Notes under the pieces: model-generated
Told to the model about the DNA's origin: nothing
Seen by the model: the letters and a program-made list of their open reading frames with translations, nothing else
The model's database searches: none
In this document: one piece after another, positions 1 through 23,480 of the stretch
Position numbering within the stretch: position 1 is the first letter of the stretch
Layout: every line of letters begins with the position of its first letter
Program-made: the position numbers and the translations under genes
DNA from: Anaerolineales bacterium
GTDB lineage: Bacteria; Chloroflexota; Anaerolineae; Anaerolineales; DRMV01
Assembly (NCBI GenBank): GCA_027019065.1
Contig: JALUXH010000199.1
Coordinates: forward strand, 1 to 41,270
Reading direction: 5' to 3'
DNA: 41,270 nucleotides

Positions 1-2
1 AG

Positions 3-152
3 TTTTGGTTAGACCCGGTGGTCACTTTAGCGGCAAACTACGGATACGGGCGGGCCGAATTGCGGCGCATTGAACGATTGTTACAAAGGCAAATCGCTTT
101 GCTTTGGGAGCGATGGGATGACTTCTGCGGTAGTCACGGTAGCATGGCCTAA
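3..152 (+). CDS. C-terminal part of a DUF4160-like protein (5' truncated by window edge)
   Basis: Frame 3 translates FWLDPVVTLAANYGYGRAELRRIERLLQRQIALLWERWDDFCGSHGSMA*, typical of a DUF4160 C-terminus; overlaps the next ORF. Confidence 0.6.
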   Translation, partial: FWLDPVVTLAANYGYGRAELRRIERLLQRQIALLWERWDDFCGSHGSMA

Positions 153-435
153 GATCATGGCTGTGCGGGTAAGCGAAGATACGCTCAGCGTGGATTTAGA
201 GGATGGGCGGACGATTTCAGTACCCCTGAGTTGGTATCCGCGGCTGGTGTATGCAACAGAGGCGGAACGGCAACACTTTGAGATTGCAGGAGCAGGGTAC
301 GGCATCCACTGGCCAGACATAGATGAAGACATTGGCGTGGAAGGCTTGTTGTTAGGGAAACGTTCCACCGAAAGCCAAACCTCTTTGAAGCGCTGGCTGG
401 CAGAGCGGGAGAAGAAGCGAAAAGATAGCGCTTAA
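118..435 (+). CDS. DUF2442 domain protein
   Basis: MTSAVVTVAWPKIMAVRVSEDTLSVDLEDGRTISVPLSWYPRL...IHWPDIDEDIGVEGLLLG; start moved from 70 to 118 so it overlaps the DUF4160 end. Confidence 0.75.
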   Translation: MTSAVVTVAWPKIMAVRVSEDTLSVDLEDGRTISVPLSWYPRLVYATEAERQHFEIAGAGYGIHWPDIDEDIGVEGLLLGKRSTESQTSLKRWLAEREKKRKDSA

Positions 436-554
436 ACCCGCGACAGCCCCTTCACCAAATACACCTCCCCCCGCGTGAAGCCCCGTTCCAGGTAATACTG
501 CCGGGTGCCCACGGCGGCAATCACGGCCATGCGGCGGAAGCCGGCGGCGCGGGC
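432..554 (-). pseudogene. Duplicated 3' end of elp3 (last 40 codons plus stop)
   Basis: Reads AAGFRRMAVIAAVGTRQYYLERGFTRGEVYLVKGLSRV* on minus strand; 119/123 identical to 2832-2954 at an exact 2400-bp offset. Confidence 0.9.
432..554. repeat. Direct repeat copy A (123 bp)
   Basis: Line-by-line alignment with 2832-2954; mismatches only at 435, 513, 525, 552. Confidence 0.95.
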
Positions 555-598
555 AGTTGTGTAGCCACAGCACCCTGACACTGCAAGTAAAACGAAGA

Positions 599-627
599 CG
601 CCCTGCTGCCAAAGCAGGGCGTTTTTT
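599..627 (+). terminator. Rho-independent terminator-like hairpin
   Basis: CGCCCTGCT-gccaa-AGCAGGGCG followed by TTTTTT; just beyond the 3' end of the R gene. Confidence 0.8.
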
Positions 628-632
628 GTGGC

Positions 633-1490
633 TCAGGCGGCCAAATCAAGCGGCAGGTCGCTGATATCGCGCAGGCGCTGCCCCGAAATCATGGTTTCAA
701 GCAGGCCCTGGGCTGTTTCATCGCCGACTGCCGCAACCGCCTGCTGAAGTTCGGGCAAAGCGACGTGATACACACCATCCAGGTCGCCCGTGCCCAACGC
801 AAGGGAAGCCAGCCTGCCCGGGTGCGGCTCGGCAGTAACCACCACAATGTGCGGTGTATGCCCTTTCCGGTTGCGGATGAGGTTCAGCCCTTCAGTGCGC
901 ACGTTTTGCGAACGGTCGCTGCGGATGGTCCATTTGCAGGAAATGCTGGCGTGCAAGAGCGGCACGGTGTTGTTCACCCGGCGCAACGGTGAAAGGCCGG
1001 CGATGGTGCGCCCTTCAACGAGCTTCTCTCCCCGATTGATCGCTTCGTCAGGAAGCGGCTCACGCGCCACAATGATGTCGGGGGCAATGAGGTAATCCCC
1101 CAATGCCGCCCGCAGCGCCGGATGCGCGTGCAGCGCCTCGGTCAGGTCGGCCAAATGGCGGTATTGGGCGAAATCCTGAATGTGTGCATTGAGGTAAAAA
1201 CGCCAGTCGCCGGGGCGAAGGTGTTGCAGCAAGCCAAAGGCTTCCTCAAGGTAACGGCGGGTAACGCCTTCAAAGGATTTGCCTACCTGCTGCGGCTTGC
1301 GCTCATTCCGCGAAAGGCCACAACCAGCGTTTGTAGCAATGCTTTCCCACATCAAGCGGGCAACCTCGCGGCTGGTTTTGTTGCTCTTATCGGCATTGTT
1401 GGGATAGCCCGCCGAGGAAAGCCAAACCACCTCATCGCAAAGCGCGCGATGATAACGCTGCCGCAAGTTTTGCCACACCGTGGGCGTCAT
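633..1490 (-). CDS. Type II restriction endonuclease, NgoMIV family
   Basis: NgoMIV-like blocks: LLQHLRPGDW, APDIIV, PLLHASISCKWTIRSDRSQNVRTEGLNLIRNRKGHTPHIVVVTAEP, LALGTGDLDGVYH, GQRLRDISDLPLDLA. Confidence 0.93.
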   Translation of the reverse strand: MTPTVWQNLRQRYHRALCDEVVWLSSAGYPNNADKSNKTSREVARLMWESIATNAGCGLSRNERKPQQVGKSFEGVTRRYLEEAFGLLQHLRPGDWRFYLNAHIQDFAQYRHLADLTEALHAHPALRAALGDYLIAPDIIVAREPLPDEAINRGEKLVEGRTIAGLSPLRRVNNTVPLLHASISCKWTIRSDRSQNVRTEGLNLIRNRKGHTPHIVVVTAEPHPGRLASLALGTGDLDGVYHVALPELQQAVAAVGDETAQGLLETMISGQRLRDISDLPLDLAA

Positions 1491-2824
1491 GACACATCTC
1501 CCTCTTTGAGAAAGCCGAGGACATACTCCGAGTGCATCCGCTTTTCAATAGCTGAGCCAATGCCGCCGCGCCGCGTGGGCATCATCCGGCGGTCGCGGTC
1601 CAACTGACGCTCGCCAATGCCCACACAGCGCAGCCCTACCTGCTCGCCAATGGCAGCCAGGCTTTGGGGCACGCGAGCAGGCACGCCGCGCATTGTGCTC
1701 TCGCCCACAACCAACACGGCAACACCTTCAGGCGCAAGCACCCGCCCCATTTCGCTCAATCCCCGGCGCATTTCAGAGAAATACCGGTGAAGCACTTTGC
1801 CCTTTCTGGCATCCACCGCGGCAACTTCAGCCACGGCCTGCATGGCTGCAGGCGGCAGGGCTTCCATTTCAAAGCCCTGCAACGCCTCGCCGCCGATGTA
1901 TTCCTTCCGCAAAGCGCCCAATGCCCGAATGCTGTAGCCCCACCAAATCAGCGAAAACTTATGCGCCCGCATGTAGTCAATGGCGTTGGCAGCATAGGGC
2001 GGCGACGTCACAATGAGGTGAACGCTGTTCGTGGCAAAAGGAAGGCGCTGGGCATCGGCTTCGCTCAACCAGGGGGAAACCGATGGGCGCGGCGGCATTT
2101 GAGCCAACAGGCGTAAAGCCCGCCGTGCTTTTGCACGGAAGGCTTCCACTGCCGAGCGGGGGGCTTTTGCTACTTTATGGGGGCGGGTGTGGGAAAGGTC
2201 GCGTGCCTGCGCCACGCTCCCCGATTTGGCAATGATGATGCTGGAAAACACCACCCGCAAAAAAGGCTGCATGGCAGGCGGGCTTTCCTCAATGGCCGCG
2301 CTCAAAGCAAGCAGTTCCTGCTGGGTTTGAGGCAAAAACCAGTAATCGGCAAAGGCACGGGTGGGGGCGTCCAGGCGGGTTTCCCGCAAAACGGCAAGGT
2401 CTTGGGGGTTTTCCAGCATTTGCCGGGCACGGGTGAGCACGGCGTGGAAAGCCGATTCAAACAATGCGGGGGCCGGCGGGTTGGCTTTGGCCGCCACTAA
2501 CCGCAGCGCCAAAGGGTCAATGTCGGTACCTAACGCCACACGCCCCAGGCGGTGGGCTTCCAAAATCGTAGTGCCGGAACCCATCATGGGGTCAAGCACA
2601 TGGTCGCCGGGCCCGGTGAGGTGGCGGATGAAAAGCCGCGGCAACGCCGGCGGGAATTTTGCAGGGAAAGGATGGAGCGCATGTAGCGGGTCTTCCCCCT
2701 TTTGGCCGTGGAAGTTCAGGTCGCCTTCCAGCAGCAAGCGCAGTTTGGCCGCTTGCGAGGGGGCGGCAACCACTTCGGGACGCAGTTGAGGTTGAGGCAA
2801 GGTGTATTCCAGCGGCAGTTGCAT
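1487..2824 (-). CDS. DNA methyltransferase of the R-M pair (TSPPY motif, probably N4-cytosine)
   Basis: HPFPAKFPP, VLDPMMGSGTT (motif I), VTSPPYAANAIDYMRAHKFSLIWW (motif IV); ATGA overlap with the R gene. Confidence 0.9.
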   Translation of the reverse strand: MQLPLEYTLPQPQLRPEVVAAPSQAAKLRLLLEGDLNFHGQKGEDPLHALHPFPAKFPPALPRLFIRHLTGPGDHVLDPMMGSGTTILEAHRLGRVALGTDIDPLALRLVAAKANPPAPALFESAFHAVLTRARQMLENPQDLAVLRETRLDAPTRAFADYWFLPQTQQELLALSAAIEESPPAMQPFLRVVFSSIIIAKSGSVAQARDLSHTRPHKVAKAPRSAVEAFRAKARRALRLLAQMPPRPSVSPWLSEADAQRLPFATNSVHLIVTSPPYAANAIDYMRAHKFSLIWWGYSIRALGALRKEYIGGEALQGFEMEALPPAAMQAVAEVAAVDARKGKVLHRYFSEMRRGLSEMGRVLAPEGVAVLVVGESTMRGVPARVPQSLAAIGEQVGLRCVGIGERQLDRDRRMMPTRRGGIGSAIEKRMHSEYVLGFLKEGDVS

Positions 2825-2830
2825 AACCTC

Positions 2831-2836
2831 ATTATA
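2831..2836 (-). promoter_or_regulatory. Perfect -10 hexamer (TATAAT) overlapping the elp3 stop, 6 bp before the methyltransferase ATG
   Basis: Minus strand reads GGGTATAATGAGGTTATG; weak -35 candidate TTGGTG at 16-bp spacing; also an RBS-like GAGG. Confidence 0.45.
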
Positions 2837-2954
2837 CCCGCGACAGCCCCTTCACCAAATACACCTCCCCCCGCGTGAAGCCCCGTTCCAGGTAATACTG
2901 CCGGGTGCCCACCGCGGCAATCACCGCCATGCGGCGGAAGCCGGCGGCGCGAGC
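2832..2954. repeat. Direct repeat copy B (123 bp), inside intact elp3
   Basis: See copy A at 432-554. Confidence 0.95.
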
Positions 2955-4442
2955 GATGCGGTCGGCTTCTGCTAACAGTCGCGTGCCCAGGCCGATGTGC
3001 TGGGCTGCGCCTTCCTGGGCCGCGCCTACGGGCAGCGATTGGCCGTAAACATGCACTTCGCGGATGATGGCCGCCCCCGCGAGGTCGGCCATGCCCACAT
3101 CGGGCGCTTCGGGGCGGGGCAGCGAAAGCCGCAGGAAGCCCGCCAGGCGGTCGTCGGGGGTGACGAATTGCAAAAAGTGCTCCTCCGCGTGGGCGGCGGC
3201 GTAGGTGAAGTCTTCCAGCCGCAGCAGTTCGGGGCGCACGGGCTTGCCCCGCACCTCACGGCAGCGGATGCAACGGCAGCGGGTGCCGCGGCGCGCCATT
3301 TCGGCGAGCACATCCTGCCGCAAACTGGTGCGCTTGTTGCCCGCCACCACGTGCGTGGAGGGAATGTCGCGGATCACCCGGTTGATGCGGCAATAGGGCG
3401 GCACGGTGGCCTTCACGTCGGCCAGCAGGTCAACCAGTGCCTCGGTGGTGTAGGGGGTGTAGTTCCCGGCTTTCCAGATTTCGTAGAGTTCGGTGCCGGG
3501 CAGCAGTTGAGCCGGGTAAATTTTCAGTTCGTCGGGGCACAGGCCCTGCCACAGGCGGGCGAAATCGGTGCGGTCGCTCTCCGGCGTGGCACCCAGCAGG
3601 TTGGGCATCCAGTGCGCCACGATTTTGAAGCCCGCCGCCCGCAGCAGCGCCGCGGCGCGCAGGTTGTCTGCCGCTGTGTGGCCGCGCTTGTTGAGGGCTA
3701 AAATGCGGTCGTCCATGCTCTGGAAGCCCACCTGCACCTTGGTCACGCCCAGTTCGCGCAGGCGGCGCAGGGAAGCCGGCGAAACGTGGTCGGGGCGGGT
3801 TTCCACCACCAGCCCCACATTGCGGTGGCGGGCGGTCTCGTTGTGGCGCTGGGCGGCGGCCAGCGAAGGCGCGCGGCACTCGCCTTCCTGCTGCCACGCG
3901 GCAGGGCAGTCGTCGGCGTTGAGGGCGTCGTACAGGCGGCGGATGAACCACGTCTGGTAATCCTTCGGGTAAGCCGTCCACGTGCCGCCGAGCACCAGCA
4001 GCTCAATTTTGTCGGTGGGGTGGCCGACGGCTTCCAGCGCGGCCAGGCGGGCGCGCACCTGGGCGTAGGGGTCAAAGGCGTGCATCAGCGCCCGCTGCGC
4101 GCCGGGTTCGTCGGGCAGGTAACTTTTGGGCATCCGCACATCGTCGGGGCAGAAAATGCACTCGCCCGGGCAGGGGTAGGGCTTGGTGAGCACCGTGACC
4201 ACCGTGACGCCCGAAAGCGAGCGCACCGGCTTCAGGCGGATGCGCGCCAGCAGGTCATGGTCGGCTTCCCACGCGCCGCTTTCCACCAGGCGGCGGTAGG
4301 CCGCCACTAAGGCGCTCTTGCTCAACAGCCCGCGCGGCAGCGGGTGGTGCTTGATGGCCGTCATTACATCCAGGCCGTCGCGGATGGCTTCCAGCGCGGC
4401 CACGGCCTGGGCAAAGGTTTCGGGGGAAAGGTCAGAGGGCAT
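2832..4442 (-). CDS. elp3: Elp3 family radical SAM / GNAT tRNA uridine-modifying enzyme
   Basis: TVVTVLTKPYPCPGECIFCPDD, ELLVLGGTWTAYP, VVETRPDHVSP, KVQVGFQSMDD, C-terminal GNAT domain. Confidence 0.93.
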   Translation of the reverse strand: MPSDLSPETFAQAVAALEAIRDGLDVMTAIKHHPLPRGLLSKSALVAAYRRLVESGAWEADHDLLARIRLKPVRSLSGVTVVTVLTKPYPCPGECIFCPDDVRMPKSYLPDEPGAQRALMHAFDPYAQVRARLAALEAVGHPTDKIELLVLGGTWTAYPKDYQTWFIRRLYDALNADDCPAAWQQEGECRAPSLAAAQRHNETARHRNVGLVVETRPDHVSPASLRRLRELGVTKVQVGFQSMDDRILALNKRGHTAADNLRAAALLRAAGFKIVAHWMPNLLGATPESDRTDFARLWQGLCPDELKIYPAQLLPGTELYEIWKAGNYTPYTTEALVDLLADVKATVPPYCRINRVIRDIPSTHVVAGNKRTSLRQDVLAEMARRGTRCRCIRCREVRGKPVRPELLRLEDFTYAAAHAEEHFLQFVTPDDRLAGFLRLSLPRPEAPDVGMADLAGAAIIREVHVYGQSLPVGAAQEGAAQHIGLGTRLLAEADRIARAAGFRRMAVIAAVGTRQYYLERGFTRGEVYLVKGLSRV

Positions 4443-4562: not shown

Positions 4563-4606
4563 AAGGGCATTCCTGCCCGCCTGGCAGGTTTTGGAAGGAG
4601 AAAGCC

Positions 4607-5089
4607 ATGACTGTCCATACCCCTGCCCCGCCGCGCGGCCTGAAGGCCATCCCCTGGCGGCTGCCGATATGGATTTACCGCCTGCACCTCGGCTTTTTGC
4701 TCAACGAGCGCTTCCTGCTGCTGGAGCACACCGGGCGCAAAAGCGGCAAGGTGCGCCGCGCGGTGCTGGAAATCATCGGCAAAGATGCCGAACCACGGGC
4801 CTATTATGTGGCTTCGGGGTTTGGCGAGCGGTCGCACTGGTTCCGCAACGTGATGCACCATCCGGAAGTCCGCATTCAGGTGGGGCGGCGGCGTTACCGG
4901 GCGTACGCGGAGCGGCTTCCGGAAAGCGAGGCGCTGGAACGCCTGCGCGCCTATGCCCAAGCGCACCCCACGGCCCTGCGTGAACTGGTCCGGCTGCTGC
5001 ACTACCCTTACGACGGCAGCGACGAAAGCCTGGAAGCCATTGGCCGCGCCTTGCCCGTGGTGCGCTTTCGGGTGCTGGAAGCCGCATAA
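4607..5089 (+). CDS. Deazaflavin (F420)-dependent nitroreductase-like protein (Ddn/DUF385 type)
   Basis: [21 protein letters not shown]...[28 protein letters not shown]. Confidence 0.8.
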
Positions 5090-9234: not shown

Positions 9235-9433
9235 CTCATGTTACGCAGCTGAGTATCCACATATCTAAGCGCCCTCACCTTACCCCCGCTGCGCGCCCCC
9301 TCTCCTCTCCCAGTGGGAGAGGAGAGGGGGCCGAGCCGCCGCGAAGAGGGAGTGGTGAGGGCGAAAAGGCCGAATGTTCAACGGTTTCATAGGGTGAAAT
9401 TGCTGCCTGTCAATCACTGCTGCGTAACGTGAG
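9235..9433. repeat. Inverted-repeat-bounded element with nested palindromes (MITE/REP-like)
   Basis: 15-bp outer arms ctcatgttacgcagc/gctgcgtaacgtgag (14/15); inner CGCCCTCACC/GGTGAGGGCG (9270-9279/9354-9363); central 16-bp stem 9296-9311/9315-9330. Confidence 0.6.
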
Positions 9434-9480
9434 TTAAGGTGGCAGATTGGATATCGTGAACCCAAGTCCTGCGCTTTCTT

Positions 9481-13093: not shown

Positions 13094-13183
13094 TTACGAG
13101 GGCCTGTTTTTGTAACTGCCTACGCTGGGGTGCCCTCCAGGCGTCTTGATGTGCTGCGCCTTTGCCATACCCCTCCCCTTGCT

Positions 13184-13207
13184 CCCCTCCCCGCATGCGG
13201 GGAGGGG
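13184..13207. repeat. Perfect 24-bp palindrome CCCCTCCCCGCATGCGGGGAGGGG (REP-like)
   Basis: Direct reading; same style as the palindromes at 9296-9330 and 23378-23414. Confidence 0.7.
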
Positions 13208-13416
13208 ATGGGGGTGGGGTCAACGCAGCGGCGGCGGCGCCAAAGAAAAACGCGGTGTGAAAACACGCCTCGCATTGCCAGCGCTACGATTTGGGTAGGC
13301 AATTACTTTTTTTCGGCGTTTGGCCGGGGTGGAGCGGGAATGCGGGGGTGCCGGGGGCAGGTATTTGCCCCCGGCCGTGAGGGTGTTCCCCACAACCTTT
13401 GGGTGCTCTTCACTGC

Positions 13417-23334: not shown

Positions 23335-23480
23335 GGTGATTACCCAGATCTCTCCCCACCCCCGCCCCGCCGGGGCCTCCCCCTCCCCTCCCTTTGTAAG
23401 GGAGGGGAGGGGGAAAAGCCGCCGCAGGCGGCTTGGGGGAGGGGTGAGATCACCCTTCTTCCGAGTTTTGGGTAATCACC
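23335..23480. repeat. 146-bp MITE-like element with perfect 12-bp terminal inverted repeats
   Basis: GGTGATTACCCA 23335-23346 and TGGGTAATCACC 23469-23480; internal 17-bp stem 23378-23394/23398-23414 and 8-bp stem AAGCCGCC-gca-GGCGGCTT 23416-23434. Confidence 0.75.

What the first reader, a model, noticed from the sequence alone, without database searches (positions are those of the whole stretch)
432..2954. R-M cassette bracketed by a 123-bp direct duplication of the elp3 3' end
432-554 and 2832-2954 align without gaps at an exact 2400-bp offset (119/123). Copy B is the end of intact elp3; copy A is a stranded fragment carrying the last 40 codons plus stop. Between them lie only the methyltransferase, the NgoMIV-like endonuclease and a terminator. 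No transposase, integrase or short IRs are visible. This matches insertion with long target duplication, described for R-M gene complexes in Helicobacter, or site-specific insertion into a conserved 3' end as islands do with tRNA genes. elp3 encodes a tRNA-modifying enzyme.
Basis: partly seen in the sequence, partly recalled or inferred. Interest (0 to 1): 0.88.

Follow-up and report, generated by a model that had tools for sequence, protein, structure and literature searches.

The report
R-M genes bracketed by gene-end repeats
A bacterial DNA-cutting defence gene pair sits between two copies of the tail of a neighbouring housekeeping gene; the same layout recurs around relatives of this pair next to unrelated genes, which suggests such pairs can slip into genomes by ordinary recombination at one gene end, without a transposon.

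Summary
In detail: 432-554 and 2832-2954 match ungapped at 119/123. Copy B is the end of intact elp3, copy A a stranded 3' end, with only a methyltransferase (MT), an NgoMIV-family endonuclease (RE) and a terminator between. Sister genome G002 carries elp3-MT-RE (92.5% DNA identity) with no second elp3 end. Of 80 related RE loci, only the G002 locus neighbours elp3. Yet 8 of 78 MT-RE units are bracketed by direct repeats, against 0 of 282 shifted control placements (p=3.6e-6). In four cases (elp3, mgtE, an SDR gene, a DUF3795 gene) the repeat is a host-gene 3' end stopping at the stop codon, and copy differences are mostly synonymous (31.5 vs 16.5), as if two alleles had been juxtaposed rather than one target duplicated. 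Best reading: single-crossover (or homology-facilitated) integration of a fragment carrying gene-end+MT+RE, closed by an illegitimate join. Experiments in E. coli produced such duplications of 109-950 bp. For the window itself this is inference: A does not resemble the nearest genome's elp3, no empty elp3 site was found, and the contig ends 431 nt beyond A.

The parts
432..554 (-). Copy A: stranded 3' end of elp3 (last 40 codons + stop); core of the repeat probably 432/436-551
2832..2954 (-). Copy B: the same 123 bp as the 3' end of intact elp3
2832..4442 (-). elp3, intact, 536 aa (TIGR01211)
1487..2824 (-). amino-methyltransferase gene (PF01555; DPMMGSGTT and TSPPY motifs), 445 aa; starts 7 nt after the elp3 stop codon
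633..1490 (-). NgoMIV-family type II restriction endonuclease gene (PF09015; only PDB relative NgoMIV 1FIU/4ABT, E=4e-73), 285 aa
598..627 (.). terminator-like hairpin downstream of RE, shared with G003
545..563 (.). RE-side join: GGCGCG(G) shared by the elp3 interior and the btuF 3' end that follows RE in G003; probable illegitimate junction with 6-7 nt microhomology
70..435 (+). DUF2442 gene (PF10387), intact to its natural stop (433-435), convergent with copy A; with an unnamed partial ORF (1-149) it forms a pair that lies elsewhere in G002 and G011

Best explanation
An ordinary NgoMIV-type R-M gene pair was integrated at the 3' end of elp3 by one-sided homologous recombination, not by a transposase or integrase. 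A donor fragment running from the elp3 3' end through MT and RE to just inside the next gene (btuF, as in G003) was either circularised by an illegitimate join (microhomology GGCGCG) and integrated by a single crossover in the elp3 end (Campbell type), or entered linearly with one homologous and one illegitimate end (homology-facilitated illegitimate recombination). Either route leaves intact elp3-MT-RE, then a truncated copy of the elp3 end (A), then the recipient's downstream DNA (DUF2442). The identity of the copies stops at the stop codon because donor and recipient share the gene but not what follows it. Shown: the architecture; recurrence in the R-M family; a repeat-free elp3-MT-RE arrangement in G002; a single-copy empty site for the mgtE case; synonymous-biased copy differences. 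Inferred: the circular or linear intermediate, the direction of transfer, and that this route applies to the window itself.
For: 8 of 78 non-redundant MT-RE units are bracketed by direct repeats (>=40 nt, >=75%, within 700 nt of each end) against 0 of 282 shifted placements in the same loci, p=3.6e-6. In four (window elp3, L173 mgtE, L208 SDR gene in mirror image, L279 DUF3795 gene) the repeat is a gene 3' end stopping at the stop codon, as expected if two alleles of one gene with different downstream neighbours were joined. Differences between those copies are 31.5 synonymous to 16.5 nonsynonymous; P=8e-4 to 5e-5 for copies identical at birth with a free-evolving stranded copy; window 3:0. 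G002 has the repeat-free elp3-MT-RE order; identity there is 90.9-93.6% for RE, elp3 and MT but 76-82% for the three other loci compared. RE-btuF in G003 matches the window's RE-side edge to about 558. The mgtE empty site has one copy running into the flank that follows copy R in G452. In E. coli, conjugation of a plasmid linearised so that one end is homologous to the 3' end of lacZ gave mostly duplications of 109-950 bp, attributed to recircularisation and a single crossover (PMC3240628).
Against: A is 97% identical to B and 94% to G002 but only 75% to the elp3 end of G004, the genome closest at most other loci; a one-step import into a G004-like recipient should leave a G004-like A, so an extra step (recipient already carrying G002-like elp3) is needed. 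The window has only three internal differences between copies. No genome with elp3 directly followed by DUF2442 was found. The L173 copies carry 10 nonsynonymous differences. L195 is coding only doubtfully and L130, L165 and L169 look non-coding, so not all brackets fit the gene-end pattern. The SDR fragment is only 52 nt and could come from a paralogue.
Confidence: 0.48

Rival explanations
1. Local event after the R-M pair had settled: a tandem duplication of about 555-2954 followed by loss of the outer R-M copy, or a template switch that copied 120 bp of the elp3 end into a rearrangement breakpoint joining RE to DUF2442. The repeat then says nothing about how the R-M pair moved.
For: G002 has elp3-MT-RE without A, and A and B share G000-specific derived sites, so A postdates the elp3-MT join. 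Flanks of the block are scrambled between G000, G002 and G003. The join 551/555 is exactly what a tandem duplication of that unit would leave.
Against: Needs A to stop at the elp3 stop codon and DUF2442 to begin at its own stop by chance. Does not explain why 8 of 78 R-M units but 0 of 282 control placements are bracketed, nor the synonymous bias over four loci.
Confidence: 0.24
2. Insertion with long target duplication by an R-M-specific or replication-linked process, as proposed for Helicobacter: the target segment is copied during insertion and both copies start identical.
For: Repeat length (43-159 bp) and variability, absence of transposase and the empty mgtE site fit the description.
Against: In four cases the copies end at a gene's stop codon, which a random target would not do. 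Copy differences are synonymous-biased beyond that model. In the window A is younger than the elp3-MT join.
Confidence: 0.14
3. Remnant of a site-specific island that used the 3' end of the host gene as attachment site, with an integrase lost or acting in trans.
For: Gene 3' ends recur; the mgtE end carries different defence modules in relatives (R-M in G452; R-M plus GmrSD and a ResIII-type helicase in G456; the latter without R-M in G458), like an island hot spot.
Against: Four unrelated target genes for one R-M family, variable repeat length, and no integrase between the repeats in the loci annotated.
Confidence: 0.07
4. Assembly artefact at a contig end of a draft (probably metagenome-assembled) genome.
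For: The window is a whole contig, A lies 431 nt from its end, the genome has 277 contigs and 3% contamination; the G003 contig also breaks inside this stretch of elp3.
Against: Both A joins are between unrelated sequences with only about 6-7 nt in common, too short for a usual assembly chimera; the architecture recurs in independent assemblies.
Confidence: 0.07

Closest known systems
Insertion of R-M units with long, variable target duplication (Nobusato et al. 2000; Furuta et al. 2010; summarised in PMC3874152 and PMC3031569)
   Same: R-M genes alone between direct repeats of about 100 bp, no transposase or integrase
   Different: In four cases the repeats are gene 3' ends stopping at the stop codon, and copy differences look allelic; the unit in the window appears already to have been linked to elp3 (G002) before the repeat arose
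Single-crossover integration of a recircularised fragment, and homology-facilitated illegitimate recombination (PMC3240628)
   Same: One homologous anchor in the 3' part of a gene, one illegitimate join, a 109-950 bp duplication of the gene end
   Different: Shown with a laboratory plasmid in E. coli; here inferred from natural sequences. HFIR junctions there mostly lacked homology; here there are 6-7 nt
[quoted passage not shown]
   Same: No mobile element needed; core genes as anchors
   Different: That model uses two homologous flanks and leaves no repeat
NgoMIV type II R-M system (PDB 1FIU)
   Same: Endonuclease PF09015, E=4e-73
   Different: Paired here with an amino-methyltransferase; the plasmid NgoMIV-family enzyme looked at is next to a DNA cytosine methyltransferase

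Membership tests
NgoMIV-family type II R-M system | Endonuclease of family PF09015 | tested here: met
   341.9 bits, cut-off 23.2; PDB 1FIU E=4e-73
NgoMIV-family type II R-M system | Active-site residues kept (positions of the active site recalled from memory) | tested here: inconclusive
   D138, S184-C185-K186 and E200 invariant in 8 homologues; not checked against the structure
NgoMIV-family type II R-M system | Adjacent methyltransferase gene | tested here: met
   MT directly upstream of RE on the same strand here; MT homologue detected in 77 of 80 RE loci
NgoMIV-family type II R-M system | Recognition of GCCGGC | not testable with these tools
   GCCGGC is under-represented also in genomes without the system, so site counts say nothing
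R-M insertion with long target duplication | R-M genes bracketed by direct repeats of about 100 bp | tested here: met
R-M insertion with long target duplication | Empty site in a relative with one copy | tested here: inconclusive
   Not found for elp3 among the 60 relatives searched; found for the mgtE case (G465)
R-M insertion with long target duplication | Duplication made at the arrival of the unit (copies identical at birth) | tested here: inconclusive
   G002 lacks A; A shares G000-specific sites; synonymous bias argues against it
R-M insertion with long target duplication | No transposase, integrase or terminal inverted repeats | tested here: met
   Only MT and RE between the copies; no end-to-end inverted repeat among the 25 longest listed
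Site-specific island at a gene 3' end | Integrase within the element | tested here: not met
   Only MT and RE between A and B
Site-specific island at a gene 3' end | Fixed attachment gene | tested here: not met
   Only G002 of 80 loci next to elp3; other anchors are mgtE, SDR, DUF3795
Single-crossover or HFIR integration | Homologous anchor plus illegitimate join | tested here: inconclusive
   The joins fit but the intermediate cannot be seen
Single-crossover or HFIR integration | Copies are donor and recipient alleles | tested here: inconclusive
   Synonymous bias over four loci; in the window only 3:0, and A is not G004-like

The most novel reading that the evidence does not exclude
One-sided homologous capture at gene 3' ends is a general route by which integrase-less R-M and other defence units spread; the 'long target duplications' reported for 25 years are juxtaposed donor and recipient alleles, recognisable by repeats that end at stop codons and differ synonymously, and they would allow the unit to be popped out or amplified by RecA.
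Probability: 0.33. Interest if true: 0.75.

Novelty: new member of a known kind. Interest (0 to 1): 0.55.

Why it matters
How R-M pairs without any transposase move has been open since long target duplications were reported. The recurrent gene-end brackets, with a within-locus control and a codon-level test, make the question testable on public genomes: repeats from target duplication should be identical when young and end anywhere; repeats from allele juxtaposition should end at stop codons and differ like orthologues. Anchoring at conserved gene ends would also explain insertion without harm to the host gene and give a ready path to excision.

Tried and rejected
Site-specific targeting of elp3: rejected, only the G002 locus among 80 RE loci is next to elp3. 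First idea that A is simply the recipient's native elp3 end: rejected for a G004-like recipient, A is 75% identical to G004 and 94% to G002. Restriction-site avoidance as a hint on specificity: uninformative. Furuta et al. 2010 is not held, so its repeats could not be compared. The 463-bp repeat next to a truncated RE in L218 and the RE-end repeat in L181 (1 synonymous to 5 nonsynonymous) were not counted as brackets.

Full report
WHAT IS THERE. The repeat is as described: 432-554 and 2832-2954, ungapped, 119/123, 2400 nt apart, and nowhere else in the genome. Copy B ends intact elp3; copy A holds the last 40 codons plus stop. Between them lie only an amino-methyltransferase gene, an NgoMIV-family endonuclease gene and a terminator. 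MT starts 7 nt after the elp3 stop. The window is one whole contig of a draft genome (G000), so little can be seen beyond A.

RELATIVES OF THE LOCUS. G002 (same genus) has elp3-MT-RE in the same order, 92.5% identical over 633-4426, and no second elp3 end. The block has sharp edges at the RE stop and at the elp3 start, and unrelated flanks. Elsewhere G000 and G002 share 76-82% at the three other loci compared, while elp3, MT and RE share 92.5, 93.6 and 90.9%. The block therefore seems to have been exchanged as a unit, although elp3 is a conserved gene and the excess for elp3 alone is moderate (G005, about as distant elsewhere, has 87.8%). G003 has RE and the terminator at about 91%, followed by a convergent btuF gene; its RE lacks the first codons, where an unrelated sequence begins at the contig end. 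In the other same-genus genomes examined btuF is followed by other sequence, and in G000 it lies on another contig. The tail between terminator and A in the window aligns with the G003 tail down to about position 558, better than all 1000 shuffles, and at the join GGCGCG(G) occurs in both the elp3 interior and the btuF end. That would explain the mismatch at 552. The DUF2442 pair lies elsewhere in G002 and G011, with its stop codon in the same place, so DUF2442 is intact and meets copy A at its natural end. No genome searched had DUF2442 beside elp3.

AGE OF COPY A. A and B share sites that differ from G002, including the loss of the TAG stop that gives the extra residues SRV. Unless the copies were homogenised, A formed after the G000-G002 split, whereas elp3-MT adjacency is older. 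This removes the simple reading that A was made when the R-M pair first arrived at elp3. It leaves re-integration into a strain without the pair, or a local event.

IS BRACKETING COMMON? I fetched 80 related RE loci and further ones from 793 genomes of two groups. In 857 kb of loci, direct repeats of >=60 nt, >=80% and spaced over 1 kb bracket MT-RE five times and lie elsewhere once. With a wider criterion on 78 non-redundant units, 8 are bracketed and none of 282 shifted placements in the same loci is (Fisher p=3.6e-6). The brackets: window, L130, L165, L169, L173, L195, L208, L279.

WHAT THE REPEATS ARE. In L173 (Gemmatimonadota) the repeat is the end of mgtE; in L208 (Chloroflexota) the end of an SDR gene, with the intact gene on the RE side; in L279 the end of a DUF3795 gene; in the window the end of elp3. 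In these four the match stops at the stop codon or within a few bases. L195 is a doubtful coding end; L130, L165 and L169 look non-coding. For mgtE, relative G465 has a single mgtE end running directly into the flank that follows copy R in G452: an empty site, although its mgtE has an internal deletion. G456 and G458 carry a GmrSD gene and, after it, in G456 a ResIII-type helicase gene (its counterpart in G458 is split) at the same mgtE end, also closed by an mgtE-end fragment of another length, so more than one event, and more than R-M genes, used this gene end.

CODON TEST. Synonymous/nonsynonymous differences between copies: window 3/0, L173 12/10, L208 9.5/4.5, L279 7/2. If the copies were identical at birth and the stranded one evolved freely, about 36-41% should be synonymous; observed 31.5 of 48, P=8e-4 to 5e-5 depending on constraint. 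Equal rates and independence of sites are assumed; the cases are few and were picked for ending at a stop codon. The window alone proves nothing.

MECHANISM. Two alleles of one gene, differing in what follows the gene, joined by one homologous crossover and one illegitimate join, give: intact gene next to MT, R-M pair, truncated second copy, native flank; repeats of variable length ending at the stop codon; allelic differences. In E. coli, conjugation of a plasmid linearised to be homologous at one end to the 3' part of lacZ mostly gave duplications of 109-950 bp of that gene end, which the authors attribute to recircularisation and a single crossover (PMC3240628). Integration of accessory genes by recombination at flanking core genes is proposed for integrase-less hot spots (PMC5635113). 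The mechanism is inferred for all loci here; the weakest point in the window is that A is G002-like and not G004-like.

VERDICT. Observation confirmed; interpretation partly supported; a new member of the known class of R-M units in long direct repeats, with a testable reinterpretation of how such repeats arise.

Noticed in passing
L239:5656-14131 (G456), L240:9921-15918 (G458), L173:2786-6972 (G452): The mgtE 3' end in this Gemmatimonadota clade carries different defence modules (MT-RE; MT-RE plus GmrSD and a ResIII-type helicase; the GmrSD-helicase part without MT-RE), each closed by an mgtE-end fragment of different length.
   Followed up: partly
L181:2424-2494 and 3338-3408: Here the 3' end of the endonuclease gene itself is duplicated around an insert of about 0.85 kb; the stranded copy has mostly nonsynonymous changes.
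   Followed up: partly
L087:1-150 (G003): The endonuclease gene lacks its first 12 codons; an unrelated sequence ends there at the contig edge (resembles the end of a transposase, but no Pfam match).
   Followed up: partly
window 1487-2824; L280 (plasmid pNORD58_4): NgoMIV-like endonucleases of this clade are paired with an amino-methyltransferase, whereas the plasmid NgoMIV-family enzyme looked at is next to a DNA cytosine methyltransferase: the partner type has been swapped within the family.
   Followed up: partly
window 9235-9436, 13108-13306, 23347-23451: Dispersed repeats; the 9235-9436 one has dozens of copies at 80-99% in related genomes.
   Followed up: no
L218:877-1338 and 4585-5047: A 463-bp direct repeat (95%) ends 25 nt from a truncated endonuclease gene; possibly an insertion sequence.
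   Followed up: no
window 1-435; L085:5438-5879; L086:4938-5356: The DUF2442 gene and its partner ORF sit in unrelated places in three genomes at about 81% identity, so the pair itself seems mobile.
   Followed up: partly
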